A program made the position numbers and the translations under genes. This document shows, one piece after another, positions 3,456 through 14,870 of a stretch of DNA of 22,063 bases (positions are counted from its first letter, which is position 1; the number at the start of each line of letters is the position of its first letter). Below the pieces are notes generated by a model. It did no database searches and was not told the origin of the DNA. It saw nothing but the letters and a program-made list of their open reading frames with translations. This DNA comes from a virus: IMG/VR virus record IMGVR_UViG_3300009762_000007, positions 1 through 22,063 of that record. One strand, 5' to 3'.

Positions 3456-4211
3456 ATGTGCAACTTTTTTAGTTTTGTGGGTGATGGGTTCGGTAATTAT
3501 AAGTATTTCGATTGGGAATATCGCAAGGACCACATTGACGGTAATTGCGATAGTCATACGGCAATCCTGACAGAAAATAAAGTCCCCCCTGATATGCAGG
3601 ATCGGTGGAGCAAATACGAATACAATCCACTGACAAAACTGTTCACGGTCGACGAGCCGGTCGAGGGCCATGATCATGAATCAGCCGAGGCGTGGGTTAA
3701 CGCACTTGATTTTAAGCAGATTATTCCACAGCTGATAATCAAGCCCATAGTTAACCCATTGACCAAAATAATAAAGCCAACAAAGAACGATATCGAGTTA
3801 CTAAAGGAGTGGTCTAGCGTGTGGCCTAGCGTGAGGGATAGCGTGATGCCTAGCGTGTGGTCTAGCGTGATGTCTAGCGTGTGGTCTAGCGTGATGGATA
3901 GCGTGTGGTCTAGCGTGATGGATAGCGTGTGGGATAGCGTGATGCCTAGCGTGTGGGATAGCGTGTGGCCTAGCGTGTGGTCTAGCGTGATGGATAGCGT
4001 GTGGCCTAGCGTGAGGGATAGCGTGTGGGATAGCGTGTGGCCTAGCGTGTGGTCTTATTTTAGTACATTTTTTGATATTGACTACAAATATGATTATAGC
4101 CCATGTATTAAACTTTGGGAGCGCGGTCTCGTCCCATCATTTGACGGTACGACATGGCGATTACACTCAGGAAAGAAAGCAACGATAGTTTATGAATGGA
4201 GAAAAAAATAG
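3456..4211 (+). CDS. phage protein with 20 tandem xSVx repeats
   Basis: A 251-residue protein with an AAGGGGG ribosome binding site. Residues 1-118 (MCNFFSFVGDG, YNPLTKLFTVD, AWVNALDFKQI) and 200-251 (FFDIDYKYDYSPCIKLWERG, LVPSFDGTTWRLHSGKK) are unique-sequence domains. I recall similar uncharacterised phage and gut-bacterial proteins with this same layout. Between them, residues 120-199 are 20 four-residue units, (S/P/D)-S-V-(W/M/R). The middle SV never changes. The repeat probably forms a regular helix or solenoid with stacked Val and Trp. Function unknown; a role through repeat-mediated binding is only inference. Confidence 0.75.
   Translation: MCNFFSFVGDGFGNYKYFDWEYRKDHIDGNCDSHTAILTENKVPPDMQDRWSKYEYNPLTKLFTVDEPVEGHDHESAEAWVNALDFKQIIPQLIIKPIVNPLTKIIKPTKNDIELLKEWSSVWPSVRDSVMPSVWSSVMSSVWSSVMDSVWSSVMDSVWDSVMPSVWDSVWPSVWSSVMDSVWPSVRDSVWDSVWPSVWSYFSTFFDIDYKYDYSPCIKLWERGLVPSFDGTTWRLHSGKKATIVYEWRKK
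3813..4052 (+). repeat. 12-bp coding tandem repeat, 20 units
   Basis: Twenty in-frame 12-bp units. Codons 2 and 3 are AGC GTG in every unit. Codon 1 is always TCT, CCT or GAT, and codon 4 is always TGG, ATG or AGG. Variation is confined to a three-letter alphabet at two fixed positions, and the array ends with TCT TAT TTT. Confidence 0.95.
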
Positions 4212-8666: not shown

Positions 8667-9602
8667 GTGAAGAAGATTGCAGAGAAACCCAGTTATGAGG
8701 ATGTGCTAGCGCTTAGAATGCTGATACGGGCATACGAGGATTTCCAGGATATGCGTAAGCGCATGGATAACCGACTAGGGCGCAAGGCGGACGGAACGGC
8801 ACAGAATGTGGCATCGAGAGCTTTTAAGTCGAGCGATGTAGAGTCGTTCGTTGGTATTTCGGACGCAAGCGCATTTCAGGAAGAGGCTATCCTTAAACAA
8901 ATGCGCCAAGTTTTGAAGCGCTTCCCGATCTACAATGATTACTTGAAAGGCGTTGACGGTGTGGGCGATATCGCGTCGGCTCACATTATTTCTAGTTTCG
9001 ATATCGTGAAGGCTTCGACAGTTTCCAAGATGTGGCAATTCGCGGGGCTCAATCCGGGAATGGTCAACGGTAAGAAGTCTATCGACAAGAAGGATTACAA
9101 GGAGGCGATGGGCCCTATCGTGGCCGAGTACGCGGCTGATCCTAAAAAGAAAAACGTCAAGTACATTGTGCTTACCGATACGCAGATTAGGGGTGACAAA
9201 TTGACACCGGGATTTCTTGCGCCATACAATGCTAATTTGCGTACCGCACTTGTCGGAGTTATGGCTGACGGATTTATTATGAGTGCATTCCGTTGGCAAG
9301 AAGTTACTGAGGTGCAGTACAATAACATGCCCGAGGATGATAGGCGTATTAAAGATGGCAAGTTCCAAGTGCTTGCGATCAAGCCTAATTCCTACGCGCA
9401 ATTCTATCACGATTACAAAAATAGACTTGCGCGTGAGGATAAATGGAAGGATGAAAGCGCGGGGCATCGTGATCGATCTGCAAAGCGGTATATGGTAAAA
9501 ATGTTTATCAAAAATTTATATGTTGCATGGAGAACGATTGAGGGGTTGCCAGTACGTGCGCCGTATCAAGAGGAGTACTTGCATCATACGCATGTAGCAT
9601 GA
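8667..9602 (+). CDS. tasA: TasA-like TIGR-associated protein (IS110 Transposase_20/Nop-like, nuclease-free)
   Basis: A 311-residue protein starting GTG, 6 nt after ACGGAGG. Residues 88-131 carry the signature of the C-terminal IS110 transposase domain: a helix-hairpin-helix (DYLKGVDGVGDIASAHIISS), then KMWQFAGLNPG. Residues 180-205 (PYNANLRTALVGVMADGFI) match the conserved 'N..LR..L' helix, and 265-301 (HRDRSAKRYMVKMFIKNLYV, then GLPVRAPY) complete it. The IS110 N-terminal RuvC (DEDD) domain is missing: only about 85 helical residues precede, and no HNH motif is visible. Published TIGR-Tas work links Tas proteins to IS110 and box C/D Nop proteins, and TasA forms lack a nuclease. Two 36-nt dual-spacer arrays follow directly. 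Predicted role: binds tigRNA and uses its two guides to bind DNA without cutting. Alternative: an IS110 remnant, which the intact frame and arrays argue against. Confidence 0.85.
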   Translation: MKKIAEKPSYEDVLALRMLIRAYEDFQDMRKRMDNRLGRKADGTAQNVASRAFKSSDVESFVGISDASAFQEEAILKQMRQVLKRFPIYNDYLKGVDGVGDIASAHIISSFDIVKASTVSKMWQFAGLNPGMVNGKKSIDKKDYKEAMGPIVAEYAADPKKKNVKYIVLTDTQIRGDKLTPGFLAPYNANLRTALVGVMADGFIMSAFRWQEVTEVQYNNMPEDDRRIKDGKFQVLAIKPNSYAQFYHDYKNRLAREDKWKDESAGHRDRSAKRYMVKMFIKNLYVAWRTIEGLPVRAPYQEEYLHHTHVA

Positions 9603-9608
9603 TATAAT
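9579..9608 (+). promoter_or_regulatory. possible promoter abutting TIGR array 1
   Basis: TTGCAT (9579-9584), 18 nt, then a perfect TATAAT (9603-9608) immediately after the tasA stop. Transcription would begin near 9615, inside the first spacer, so it would clip unit 1. A matching GATATAAGGCC precedes array 2 without a -35, so the conserved element may instead be an array leader or processing signal. Confidence 0.45.
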
Positions 9609-9680
9609 GGCCATTAAAGCAGAGTAACCCATTGGCCTTGAGCGAGCCAAAAGAAAAGAGCAACCCTAAAAGGACGAGCG
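9609..9680 (+). repeat. TIGR array 1 (2 dual-spacer units)
   Basis: Exactly 72 nt, two 36-nt units. Unit 1 (9609-9644): half-edge GGCC, spacer ATTAAAGCA, loop repeat GAGTAACCC (9622-9630), spacer ATTGGCCTT, half-edge GAGCG. Unit 2 (9645-9680): AGCC, spacer AAAAGAAAA, loop GAGCAACCC (9658-9666), spacer TAAAAGGAC, final GAGCG. The full internal edge repeat is GAGCGAGCC (9640-9648). All spacers are 9 nt. The 5' end keeps only the right half of the edge repeat and the 3' end only the left half, as expected if mature guides are cut inside edge repeats. It lies between tasA and the ParB-like gene. Confidence 0.85.
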
Positions 9681-9709
9681 TAATTTTATTTTATTAACGG
9701 AGGTACATA

Positions 9710-10390
9710 TTGAAAGTAAAGATTAGCGAATTGAAGTTTGATGATGAGCTTTTAGAGTTGCGGCCATTGGATACTCACGGAGTATCAAAGTATAGGCAGG
9801 CCATGCGCGAGGGGGCGAAGTTTCCCAAGATTGTCATTGACGATACCAATACAATTGTTGCGGGTAATCATCGAGTTACCGCTTATCGTGAAGAGTTCGG
9901 AGACAATTATATAGTCGATGCCGACAGAGTATCCTTTGACAGTCCGCGCGCGCGTATCGAATATTTCGCTAAAGACAATGCTACGCATGGGCTTCCCTTG
10001 GCGTCGATTGAGAAAAAACGCATAACCTTGAAGCTATTAGGGCTTGGAAGCAGCGCGGAGCCCATTGCTTCTATGTTCGGAGTATCCGTCAAGCGTATCG
10101 AAGAATGGGCAGGGTTTACCGTTTGCGTTATTGGTAATGTGGGCGCTCCCGGAACGGTTACTACTCGCGAATATCTTCCGCTAAAGAAAGGTTCAGAAAG
10201 CATGGCAGGCGAGGAAGTAACAAAGGCCGAGTATGAACAGCATAATGAATCCGACCTTGGATACGAGGATTATTTTCTGGCCGATTATCTGGCCTCTAGG
10301 CTTAGGCGAGGTTGGGTCAATTCAGATGATGACAGGACGGCGGAAGCGTTGCGAAATCTCAGGAAGGAGATAAACAAAATAGCGATATAA
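9710..10390 (+). CDS. ParB/Srx-fold DNA-binding protein
   Basis: A 226-residue protein starting TTG after CGGAGGT. Residues 3-90 are a ParB N-terminal (ParB/Sulfiredoxin) domain: LRPLDTHGVSKYRQAMREG, KFPKIVIDDTNTIVAGNHR with the G-N-H-R motif at 52-55 that in ParB binds CTP. Residues 113-135 (GSSAEPIASMFGVSVKRIEE) are a helix-turn-helix of the KorB/ParB kind. The C-terminal 80 residues are acidic and unfamiliar. Phage ParB-like proteins act in partition, regulation or as nucleases. No ParA lies beside it. It sits precisely between the two TIGR arrays, so it may belong to that system (regulation, or nuclease partner), which is inference. Confidence 0.75.
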   Translation: MKVKISELKFDDELLELRPLDTHGVSKYRQAMREGAKFPKIVIDDTNTIVAGNHRVTAYREEFGDNYIVDADRVSFDSPRARIEYFAKDNATHGLPLASIEKKRITLKLLGLGSSAEPIASMFGVSVKRIEEWAGFTVCVIGNVGAPGTVTTREYLPLKKGSESMAGEEVTKAEYEQHNESDLGYEDYFLADYLASRLRRGWVNSDDDRTAEALRNLRKEINKIAI

Positions 10391-10642
10391 GGCCACTCAT
10401 TATGAGGAAACCATAATAATAGAGCAAGCCGCTAGTTATGAGTAAACCGTAAACTAAAGGCGAGTCATTGAACCCGAGAAACCCAGAGTTTGGAAGCGAG
10501 TCGTAGGAAGTAAGTAAATTACGTTTGTCGAGCGGGTCAGACTTGGCGAGAAAACCATGGTGTCTGAACGAGCCAAAATAAAAGAGCAAACCAGATTATT
10601 AGAGCGAGTCACCGCAAGGAAGGGACCCGTTAAAATCGAGCG
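10391..10642 (+). repeat. TIGR array 2 (7 dual-spacer units)
   Basis: Exactly 252 nt, seven 36-nt units, starting 1 nt after the ParB-like stop. Loop repeats (consensus GAGNAAACC) begin at 10404, 10440, 10476, 10512, 10548, 10584 and 10620. Edge repeats (consensus GAGCGAGYC) begin at 10422, 10458, 10494, 10530, 10566 and 10602, with half-edges GGCC at 10391 and GAGCG at 10638. Spacer pairs: ACTCATTAT/ATAATAATA; GCTAGTTAT/GTAAACTAA; ATTGAACCC/AGAGTTTGG; GTAGGAAGT/ACGTTTGTC; AGACTTGGC/ATGGTGTCT; AAAATAAAA/AGATTATTA; ACCGCAAGG/GTTAAAATC. The loop repeats of units 4 (AAGTAAATT) and 7 (AAGGGACCC) are degenerate. No plus-strand frame stays open through it. The last edge repeat runs into the AAGGAG of the next gene. 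Confidence 0.9.
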
Positions 10643-11588: not shown

Positions 11589-11749
11589 ACGGGTAAAAGT
11601 ACTGAAAAAATGGTACTATATAGGTAGGGATTTATGAGTGTTTGAAAAATCTAACTCAAAAGCGCAAAGCCTCAAATTAAAGCCTAGTATCGCGGATAGC
11701 CCGTGGTCTAGGCTAATTATATTTGTCTAAATCATTCAAGGAGAATACT
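11589..11749 (+). promoter_or_regulatory. 161-nt intergenic leader of the ferritin gene
   Basis: No gene fits here. It contains inverted repeats AGTAC/GTACT (around 11598-11618), TTTGA/TCAAA (around 11641-11660) and AGCCTAG (11681-11687)/CTAGGCT (11708-11714) with a 20-nt loop. The last lies just ahead of the AT-rich AATTATATTT and the AAGGAG of ferritin. It may be an operator or a leader hairpin. No Fur-box consensus is evident. Confidence 0.4.
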
Positions 11750-12286
11750 ATGGCACTTTCAACTACAATTTACAATTTGCTAGAGGATCAATACAAGATC
11801 GAGCTGGGGAATCAGTACTTTTATACCGCTCTTGGCGCGTGGTCTAAGTATTACGGCTATGATGCGGCGGCGCATTACTTCTATTCCGAGGCTCACGGCG
11901 AAAGCAAGCACGCTAAATGGGTAAGAAAGTTTGTCGAGGATCGCGGTGAACAGTTTTCGTTTGCCCCTCCGACCTATACCGCTCCCAATATCACCGACTA
12001 TGCTAGCATGTTTACGATGTCCATGGAGCAAGAAAAGAATACCACGGCTCACGTTAACCTTATTTACGGGGCCGCGCTGCAAGAAAAGGATTACATAATT
12101 TGCAAGTGCCTCAAGCCTCTGTTCTCCATTCAGTACGAGGAAGAGAAAGAAATAACCGATATCGTGTCGAAGATCATTTCGCGTGGTGGAAACCCGAACG
12201 ATACGAACGCGGCCATTTCTGCTTTCAACGCCGATCCTGCCGCTATCCACGACTTCGAGTGCTTCTTGAATAAAAAGTATAACTAA
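11750..12286 (+). CDS. phage-encoded ferritin
   Basis: A 178-residue protein; the ATG at 11750 has AAGGAG 6 nt upstream, and an in-frame TTG at 11723 lacks one. Length and sequence match bacterial non-haem ferritin (FtnA type). The ferroxidase ligands are present: E18 (YKIELG), E51 and H54 (GESKH), E95 (MEQEKN), Q128 and E131/E132 (IQYEEEK). Ferritin oxidises Fe(II) and stores Fe(III) in a 24-subunit shell in the cytoplasm, and lowers Fenton damage. It sits between accessory genes and the structural operon. The missing Met/His haem site and lack of a DPS DNA-binding tail argue against Bfr or Dps. Confidence 0.9.
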   Translation: MALSTTIYNLLEDQYKIELGNQYFYTALGAWSKYYGYDAAAHYFYSEAHGESKHAKWVRKFVEDRGEQFSFAPPTYTAPNITDYASMFTMSMEQEKNTTAHVNLIYGAALQEKDYIICKCLKPLFSIQYEEEKEITDIVSKIISRGGNPNDTNAAISAFNADPAAIHDFECFLNKKYN

Positions 12287-12500: not shown

Positions 12501-14870
12501 ATGGCACTTTTCGATAATATGTTTACTAAAAAACGTAGTCCTGTCTCCATAAACCCGATACTAATGCCCAATAGTGCGGCAAATGTGGACGGTTTAATTA
12601 GGCGTTGGCCCAAGGCCCCTACGCGCGGAGTCGGGGAACTTCCCGATTTAGCGTTCAAAAACGCTAGGCTCGATCCAACATCCATCATTGCGAAATCAAT
12701 AGCGGCTACTGATTTTATACTTTACGATAAGCGAGAACTAAGAGTTAACCCAGATCATGCAGAGCCAATCGATACTTCTCCTATTTACGATCTTCTTGAA
12801 AGTCCCGTAAAAAGATATAAAGAAGTAGACGGTTATGCACTAATGTTTCTTACATCTATTCTTGTCGATCTTGTGGGTGAATTTTTTTGGTGGAAACTCC
12901 GTGACGATAGAGGTGTAGTGCAAGAGTTGTACCCTATGCCCGCATATTGGATAGTTACAACGCCAACAATTGGCAGTCCATTTTTCATGGCGTACCCCAT
13001 GGGAACTACTTCGGGAAATGCAATTCCAATTTCCATAGACGACATGGTTTGGTTTAAGCGCATGGACCCCGATGATCCATACGGACGCGGAAGAGGTACT
13101 TCCGAAGCAATTATAGACGAAGTGGAAACTGACCAGAAGGCCGCAAAAAGCCAAAAAAATCTATTTTTCAACGATTGCACCCCTCCCTATTTTATTACCG
13201 CCGAAGGCGCAACTCAAGATCAAGCAGATGCGATAAAGCAAAACCTAACACAAAAGCTAGGCGGATGGATGCACCGCAGAGAGCCGGGGGTTTTGACTTG
13301 GGCAAATGCAAGCATCGTACCCGTGGGCTTGAGCCCGCAAGAAGTGGACTTTGTAGAGTCTCGTAAATACCTAAGAGACGAATGCCTCCAGCATTATCAG
13401 ATACCGCCCGAGATTTATGGCGTTATTGAAAACTCAAATAGATCGACCATAGATGCGAGTTACTACCTATACCAAAAGAACGTCTTGGATGACCGCTATC
13501 GGTTTATAGAGCGTGCAATCAATACGCAATTGATCCATCAAGATTTTGACGTTAACCTCATCGGAAAGTTTAGGGAAATTGTACCCGAGGATGAAGATTT
13601 TAAGTTTCAGGTAACGCAAGCCGGTTTCGTTTCCGGTGCTCTTACTCGCGCTGTTTGGAAGAAGACAATGGGATTTGAAGTAGACGATGCGCATGATAAC
13701 GTTTACGTCCTCCCTATGAACATGGTAGAAATACCCGCCGATGCTCCGGTCGAGTCTAAGCCCCAGGCAACCGGCGAAGCAACGGCCAACACTACCGAAA
13801 AGCCATCCGATGAATTAGACGATGCCGCGCAATCCGAGCTAGAAGATACCGCTAAGGCAATAGTCGATTACATACAAAAAAAAAAGACTAATGAGTTAGA
13901 CACAGTAAAGGTTGTATTTGATGACCCGTTCAAGCAAGCCAAAGCTAAGGCAATGAAAAACCAAGCTAGGCGTGAGGCTATTTGGAAATCCTTTGATGCT
14001 CGGGCTACGTCTAAGGAAGGCGAGTTTATAGCGGCTATCAAAAAATATTCCAGTAAGCAAAAAGAGCAAGTACTATCGGCTGTCAGTGGGCTAAATATTC
14101 CAACGAAGGCTATCAAGGCAAAAAGCGAAGATGATGATGACGACGATGAAGATGATGGCAAAGATGAATATGGCGTAAATAGTGCGCTCAACACGGTGTT
14201 TACAGATAAGGCTAATAAAGCATTAAAATCTGCGCTTGCATTAGCTTGGATCGATTCTATGTCATCGGGGCGCGAACATTTCTACGATATGATGGGGATG
14301 GACTCGAAAGACCCTAAAATAGTGGGTAGCTTTGACCTGACAAATAAACTTTTCAATGCTTTTGTTGAGGAAAGTGGACTATTAAAAGCCGAGGGCATAA
14401 ATGAGACTACAAATGATAAGCTTAGAGATAAGTTAAACCAAGCAATTAGTGACGGAATTACTAATGGAGATACGATCAATACAATTAAAAATAGCATTCT
14501 CGATGTTTGCGACGGTGTTTATGACGAGATGGATTCTACCAGAGCCGAATTGATTGCAAGAACCGAAACCGCCGCAAGCGTGAACGCAGGAAGCTTCATG
14601 ACGGCCAAGGCTTCGGGAATGACGCAAAAGCAGTGGCTCAGTGTCCAAGATGACAGAACGCGAGGTAATAATCCTAAAGACGAGTTCGACCACGTAAATG
14701 CTGATGGTGAAACAGTAGATATAGATGAACCATTTACAAGTACGGGCGAAGATATGATGTATCCGCTAGACCCCAATGGATCAGCGGGGAATGTATGCCA
14801 GTGCCGATGTAGTTGCTTGTGGGGTAATGACGATATTCCGCTAGATTCTGGCGACGACGAGGAAGAATAA
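12501..14870 (+). CDS. portal protein fused to MuF-like head morphogenesis domain
   Basis: A 789-residue protein. Residues 1-420 are an HK97-type portal: SPIYDLLESPVKRY, LVGEFFWWKL, ELYPMPAYW, DMVWFKRMDPDDPYGRGRG, LGLSPQEVDFVESRKY and the YQIPPEIYG motif. Twelve copies would form the DNA channel at one capsid vertex. After a charged linker (about 430-560, with six consecutive Asp around 548-553), residues 570-775 carry a MuF/SPP1 gp7-like minor head domain: ELIARTETAASVNAG, QKQWLSVQDDRTR, FDHVNADGE, PLDPNGSAGNVCQCRC. Portal and MuF are usually separate adjacent genes; here they are one polypeptide. A large terminase normally precedes and is absent. Confidence 0.85.
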   Translation: MALFDNMFTKKRSPVSINPILMPNSAANVDGLIRRWPKAPTRGVGELPDLAFKNARLDPTSIIAKSIAATDFILYDKRELRVNPDHAEPIDTSPIYDLLESPVKRYKEVDGYALMFLTSILVDLVGEFFWWKLRDDRGVVQELYPMPAYWIVTTPTIGSPFFMAYPMGTTSGNAIPISIDDMVWFKRMDPDDPYGRGRGTSEAIIDEVETDQKAAKSQKNLFFNDCTPPYFITAEGATQDQADAIKQNLTQKLGGWMHRREPGVLTWANASIVPVGLSPQEVDFVESRKYLRDECLQHYQIPPEIYGVIENSNRSTIDASYYLYQKNVLDDRYRFIERAINTQLIHQDFDVNLIGKFREIVPEDEDFKFQVTQAGFVSGALTRAVWKKTMGFEVDDAHDNVYVLPMNMVEIPADAPVESKPQATGEATANTTEKPSDELDDAAQSELEDTAKAIVDYIQKKKTNELDTVKVVFDDPFKQAKAKAMKNQARREAIWKSFDARATSKEGEFIAAIKKYSSKQKEQVLSAVSGLNIPTKAIKAKSEDDDDDDEDDGKDEYGVNSALNTVFTDKANKALKSALALAWIDSMSSGREHFYDMMGMDSKDPKIVGSFDLTNKLFNAFVEESGLLKAEGINETTNDKLRDKLNQAISDGITNGDTINTIKNSILDVCDGVYDEMDSTRAELIARTETAASVNAGSFMTAKASGMTQKQWLSVQDDRTRGNNPKDEFDHVNADGETVDIDEPFTSTGEDMMYPLDPNGSAGNVCQCRCSCLWGNDDIPLDSGDDEEE

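What the first reader, a model, noticed from the sequence alone, without database searches (positions are those of the whole stretch)
8667..10642. A phage-borne TIGR-Tas system: Tas protein plus two dual-spacer guide arrays
Seen: a Transposase_20/Nop-like protein without nuclease, then two arrays with an exact 36-nt period in which two distinct 9-nt repeats (GAGNAAACC and GAGCGAGYC) alternate, separated by variable 9-nt spacers. Known: TIGR-Tas systems (Faure and colleagues, Science 2025) have just this dual-spacer organisation, occur in phages, and are related to IS110 and box C/D snoRNPs. A standard repeat finder would miss it because the repeats are only 9 nt and degenerate.
Basis: partly seen in the sequence, partly recalled or inferred. 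Interest (0 to 1): 0.96.

Follow-up and report, generated by a model that had tools for sequence, protein, structure and literature searches.

The report
Phage TIGR-TasA cassette with ParB partner
This virus fragment carries a complete TIGR-TasA system, a recently described kind of RNA-guided DNA-binding system, with its ParB-like partner and two guide arrays; it is a genuine new example of a published type whose biological job is still unknown.

Summary
The 311-aa protein passes NCBI's TIGR-Tas model. Its predicted fold matches TasH and TasR before IS110, and it has no nuclease domain, so it is a TasA. Both arrays are real: 13 repeats in exact 18-nt alternation score 93/110, against at most 56 in 200 shuffles. 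They hold 2 and 7 guide units. Relatives show the repeats are really 10 nt with 8-nt spacers.

It encodes TasParB, a ParB-like protein. The discovery paper already describes TasA-TasParB operons with arrays between or beside the genes (PMC12045711), so this is a new member of a known kind.

What I add: a sister phage (L013) carries the same cassette at another genome position. Cassette proteins are 77-85% identical, portal 53%. Spacers at matching positions are unrelated, yet one guide survives at 17/18 letters in a different array.

I found no convincing target in the phage's own contig, relatives, E. coli rRNA, or (shared guide only) IMG/VR. Best guess: a non-cutting RNA-guided binder that recruits TasParB to target DNA.

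The parts
8667..9602 (+). tasA: 311-aa Nop-domain protein without nuclease domain (GTG start)
   Evidence: NCBIfam TIGR_Tas_endo NF052498 E=3.5e-30, 105.6 bits against cut-off 100; A3 profile to TasR 9MTY 8e-29 and TasH 4e-27; AlphaFold2 pLDDT 93, Foldseek top TasH 9w04 and TasR 9mty
9609..9680 (+). TIGR array 1: 5'-truncated edge GGCC, two tigRNA units, 3'-truncated edge GAGCG
   Evidence: parse; statistics
9613..9639 (+). array 1 unit 1: A ATTAAAGCA, loop GAGTAACCC, B ATTGGCCTT
9649..9675 (+). array 1 unit 2: A AAAAGAAAA, loop GAGCAACCC, B TAAAAGGAC
9710..10390 (+). tasParB: 226-aa ParB-like protein (TTG start)
   Evidence: PHROG 1033 ParB-like 3.5e-7; AlphaFold2 pLDDT 89, Foldseek hits pNOB8-like ParB-N, KorB, Spo0J, Noc; conserved with tasA in relatives
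10391..10642 (+). TIGR array 2: 5'-truncated edge GGCC directly after the tasParB stop codon, seven tigRNA units, 3'-truncated edge GAGCG
   Evidence: parse; 13 repeats score 93/110, shuffle maximum 56
10512..10520 (+). degenerate loop repeat AAGTAAATT (unit 4), lacks the CC of box C; probably weak or dead unit
   Evidence: box C rule from PMC12045711
10611..10637 (+). array 2 unit 7: A ACCGCAAGG, loop AAGGGACCC, B GTTAAAATC; the guide shared with sister phage L013
   Evidence: 17 of 18 spacer letters identical to L013 unit at 424 (AACGCAAGG / GTTAAAATC)

Best explanation
This is a TIGR-TasA/TasParB cassette in a tailed phage. The arrays are transcribed with tasA and tasParB (inferred from spacing) and cut in the edge repeats into about nine 36-nt tigRNAs (inferred from the family). 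A TasA dimer holds each tigRNA through the box D-like GAG and box C-like CC(A) ends of its edge and loop repeats. It opens a roughly 16-bp DNA site, pairing spacer A with one strand and spacer B with the other (inferred from TasR and TasH). TasA has no nuclease, so it binds and bends without cutting; TasParB is recruited or loaded there as a DNA clamp, silencing or blocking replication or segregation of a competing element or host locus (hypothesis). Shown here: the proteins, their folds, the arrays, the subtype, the cassette's different position in two phages, and spacer turnover with one guide retained. Not shown: expression, processing, targets, or any TasParB-DNA link.
For: Family membership. 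Array structure. Co-occurrence: 15 of 43 viral loci, all in the clade of close TasA relatives, have tasParB beside tasA, as do two MAG loci; ParB-linked TasAs make up 16 of 18 members of one clade (95/91 support). TasParB has a ParB N-domain plus a helix-turn-helix-like region and C-terminal helices. Selection on guides: one guide is kept at 17/18 spacer letters while its loop is only 6/9 identical and in-place spacers are at background identity. Targeting rule and tasParB precedent: PMC12045711.
Against: No target was identified for any spacer pair. No expression data. TasParB keeps a helix-turn-helix-like region, so it may find its own DNA site and not need TasA. Some repeats are degenerate, so the arrays may be partly decayed. 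CTP binding and clamp loading by TasParB are untested.
Confidence: 0.4

Rival explanations
1. TIGR-TasA RNP acts alone as a non-cutting roadblock on other mobile elements or host genes (like type IV or V-M CRISPR); TasParB is an independent partition or regulatory protein that travels in the same operon.
For: TasA occurs without ParB in most relatives and Faure et al. propose this for TasA generally.
Against: Adjacency of tasA and tasParB is kept across one large clade despite changes in gene order and in genome position.
Confidence: 0.3
2. The cassette regulates or rearranges the phage's own genome: guides address sites in the same or sister phage, for example as an RNA-guided aid to recombination or partition.
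For: Faure et al. suggest RNA-guided help to phage integrases.
Against: Best matches of the guide pairs in the window and in L013 (12-15 of 18) are no better than in control geometries. Only part of the genome is available, so this is not excluded.
Confidence: 0.15
3. IS110-family transposase or its decayed remnant, with chance repeats beside it.
For: Weak Transposase_20 match (E=0.15); PHROG 4285 is labelled transposase.
Against: IS110 NCBIfam model 19 bits against cut-off 140, TIGR-Tas model above cut-off; no N-terminal RuvC-like nuclease region; arrays exceed all shuffles and recur in relatives.
Confidence: 0.02

Closest known systems
TIGR-TasA with tasParB (Faure et al., Science 2025, PMC12045711, fig. 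S14)
   Same: Solo-Nop TasA, operonic ParB-like gene, dual-repeat arrays between and beside the genes, 10-nt edge and loop repeats, 36-nt units
   Different: Repeats here are more degenerate than in several relatives; order is tasA-array-tasParB-array; I could not check whether this contig is in their table
TIGR-TasR (PDB 9MTY) and TIGR-TasH (PDB 9w04, 21kl and others)
   Same: Nop-domain fold and dual-repeat 36-nt arrays (fold match; array facts from the paper)
   Different: They carry RuvC or HNH nuclease domains; this protein has none
IS110 bridge-RNA recombinases (IS621, ISCro4)
   Same: Distantly related RNA-binding domain (profile E 0.003; Foldseek 4e-4)
   Different: No DEDD/RuvC-like nuclease region, no bridge RNA; arrays instead
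ParB, Noc, Spo0J, KorB clamp family
   Same: TasParB N-domain fold (Foldseek 6e-6 to 1e-3)
   Different: Motif GNHR replaces the GERR of canonical ParB (comparison from own knowledge); found beside a Tas gene

Membership tests
TIGR-Tas system | Tas protein with Nop domain | tested here: met
   NCBIfam NF052498 above cut-off; PDB profile hits TasR and TasH; fold search
TIGR-Tas system | Array of two alternating 8-12-nt repeats separated by short spacers, unit about 36 nt, truncated edge repeats at both ends | tested here: met
TIGR-Tas system | Predicted rho-independent terminator after the array | tested here: inconclusive
   Simple scan found none directly after either array; array 2 runs into the start of the next gene
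TIGR-Tas system | Array processed into 36-nt tigRNAs bound by Tas | not testable with these tools
   needs RNA sequencing
TIGR-Tas system | Tandem-spacer DNA targeting (A on one strand, B on the other) | tested here: inconclusive
   No target found; excess of near matches is not specific to the expected geometry
TasA (as against TasR or TasH) | No RuvC or HNH nuclease domain | tested here: met
   311 aa; the TIGR-Tas model spans residues 16-289; no nuclease family in Pfam, PHROGs or NCBIfam
TasA-TasParB subtype | parB-like gene in operon with tasA, 10-nt repeats | tested here: met
IS110 transposase | Full-length IS110 match including the nuclease region | tested here: not met
   NF033542 19.2 bits against cut-off 140; Transposase_20 12.9 against 21.3
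Canonical ParABS partition ParB | ParB N-domain fold | tested here: met
Canonical ParABS partition ParB | Partner ParA and parS sites | not tested
   no ParA among the ORFs scanned, but not every ORF was scanned and the contig is a fragment

The most novel reading that the evidence does not exclude
TasA-tigRNA acts as a programmable parS: it loads the TasParB clamp at guide-specified DNA, so a phage can silence or mis-segregate a chosen competitor or host locus without cutting it, and swaps guides quickly while keeping a few.
Probability: 0.3. Interest if true: 0.85.

Novelty: new member of a known kind. Interest (0 to 1): 0.42.

Why it matters
TIGR systems have no known natural targets or biological role, and how their arrays change is listed as an open question (PMC12045711). 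The window and L013 form a natural pair: the same cassette, at different genome positions, with nearly complete spacer turnover and one retained guide. That suggests the arrays are under active change and gives one guide whose target is worth hunting. It also adds a compact TasA-TasParB locus for testing whether RNA guidance and ParB loading are linked.

Tried and rejected
(1) Self-targeting: guide pairs against the window and L013, no better than control geometries.
(2) rRNA targeting: unit 7 (ACCGCAAGG/GTTAAAATC) resembles 16S GCCGCAAGGTTAAAACTC, but over 566 units true A/B pairs match E. coli 16S and 23S no better than re-paired spacers. Rejected.
(3) Targets in 0.6 Mb of related phage DNA: near matches (16 of 18) are raised for true pairs (89 against 60 +/- 8), but control geometries are raised too (73 against 56; 88 against 70), so this is not specific.
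(4) Shared guide against IMG/VR: one 18-letter match (L045, in an open frame), about what chance would give by rough estimate. The 15-letter core gave saturated lists of about 120 stretches for both the expected and the control geometry; outer bases and gene context were not enriched.
(5) Search for relatives by the window's capsid protein: none confirmed.
(6) Plasmids: no TasA match. PADLOC: no match. Rfam and tRNA: none.

Full report
What is there. The window is a whole 22,063-bp virus record, itself possibly a genome fragment, with a tailed-phage head module downstream: portal fused to a Mu-F domain at 12501-14870, and capsid and connector genes. At 8667-9602 lies a 311-aa ORF, at 9609-9680 a two-unit array, at 9710-10390 a 226-aa ORF, and at 10391-10642 a seven-unit array. 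The arrays fill the gaps between genes: array 1 starts 7 nt after the first gene's stop codon, array 2 starts directly after the second gene's stop codon and ends at the ribosome-binding region of the next gene. No promoter-like site lies just upstream of either array and no terminator-like site follows them. Co-transcription with the two genes is therefore likely, but inferred.

The arrays are not chance. With repeat consensus visible in other phages (loop GAGNAAACC, edge GAGCGAGCC), the best 13 alternating repeats at exact 18-nt steps score 93 of 110; 200 dinucleotide shuffles reach at most 56 and the reverse strand 56. Arrays begin and end with truncated edge repeats, as in published TIGR arrays. 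Across the ParB-linked relatives the letter after CC is A in 91-93% of units, so the unit is best written 10-nt repeat + 8-nt spacer, matching the 10-nt repeats reported for tasParB loci. In the window this letter is A in 67-78%, and two loop repeats (10512-10520, 10620-10628) are degraded.

The first protein is a TasA. Evidence: NCBIfam TIGR_Tas_endo, 105.6 bits against a cut-off of 100 (that model's name says endonuclease, but no nuclease domain was found here); PDB profile matches to TasR 9MTY and TasH at 8e-29 and 4e-27, IS621 and ISCro4 only at about 0.003; AlphaFold2 pLDDT 93 with Foldseek best matches TasH and TasR, then IS110. 9MTY is the TasR structure of the discovery paper.

The second protein is TasParB. 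PHROG ParB-like 3.5e-7; AlphaFold2 pLDDT 89 with Foldseek matches to pNOB8-like ParB-N, KorB, Spo0J and Noc (TM-scores about 0.3-0.5, so a domain-level match). In the alignment of 15 relatives D11, G35, G52, H54 and R55 are invariant, the last three being the GxHR motif. Of 43 viral Tas loci, 15 have this gene next to tasA; so do a Dehalococcoidia and a Thermoplasmatota MAG locus. In a 42-protein tree, 16 of 18 members of one clade (95/91) carry it, and the label needs three changes against 13.1 in shuffles. Faure et al. already report such operons, so the type is known.

What the comparison adds. L013 (IMGVR_UViG_3300049724_000004) is a sister phage with the same tasA-array-tasParB-array cassette. 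The backbone genes found in both are in the same order. In the window the cassette sits between the homologues of L013 3435-3746 and L013 4464-4916; in L013 it sits ahead of the sigma-like gene, before all of them. TasA (86-residue overlap) and TasParB are 85% and 77% identical, while the portal is 53%, the SLT-like gene 53% and the ferritin-like gene 32%; one backbone gene reaches 74%. The cassette thus appears to move or be exchanged as a block. L013 is cut at its tasA end, so only part of TasA could be compared. At matching positions the spacers share about 2-6 of 9 letters, near background, although the genes on either side align well. One unit is shared: window 10611-10637 and L013 unit at 424 agree in 17 of 18 spacer letters while the loop between the spacers agrees in 6 of 9, and the unit lies in array 2 in one phage and array 1 in the other. 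Among roughly 150,000 unit pairs from different loci, none scored 15 or more except this pair and pairs from near-identical contigs. So spacers turn over quickly, units can apparently move, and at least one guide has been kept.

Targets. The published geometry (8-nt 3' overhangs) implies top-strand target = A + reverse-complement(B), gap 0-2; this inference is mine. No convincing target was found in the phage's own contig, in L013, in related phages, in E. coli rRNA, or, for the shared guide, in IMG/VR.

Mechanism. Most likely a guide-directed, non-cutting DNA binder working with a ParB-like clamp. Binding of 36-nt guides by TasA, and two-strand targeting by TasR and TasH, are published for relatives; recruitment of TasParB is my inference.

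Verdict. It is a new member of a published subtype; the added value is the cassette pair with guide turnover.

Noticed in passing
window 8667-10642 versus L013 1-1426: The TIGR cassette sits at different positions in two phages with otherwise matching gene order, and is more similar than most of the backbone: it looks like a mobile or exchanged block.
   Followed up: partly
L020 8402-8618; L028 961-1537; L007 1531/1567; L018 1834/1870; L014 10809/10845: Within-array copies of units, some with diverged spacers, suggest arrays grow by duplication of units followed by spacer change.
   Followed up: partly
L025 10666-10668 versus L027: Two contigs 99.7% identical over 6.4 kb differ at just two letters within the array, both in one spacer B.
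   Followed up: partly
L046 and L047: TasA with TasParB and long arrays in MAG contigs labelled Dehalococcoidia (L046) and Candidatus Thermoplasmatota (L047), possible host hints.
   Followed up: no
window 11723-12286: Phage-encoded ferritin-like protein (Pfam Ferritin 7.6e-15), with a diverged homologue in L013.
   Followed up: no
window 3809-4055: 12-nt tandem repeat inside ORF 3456-4211 encodes a repeated [W/M]-x-S-V motif; no Pfam match.
   Followed up: no
window 12501-14870: Portal protein and Mu-F head morphogenesis domain fused in one 789-aa ORF.
   Followed up: no
L004 10608-11111: A Tas locus with quite different repeats (AGAAACCCA and GTGTAYCA) and several near-duplicate spacers.
   Followed up: no
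L045 12620-12638: The only IMG/VR match to the full shared guide lies in an ORF at codons for HGTQGDFN; consistent with chance by rough estimate.
   Followed up: partly
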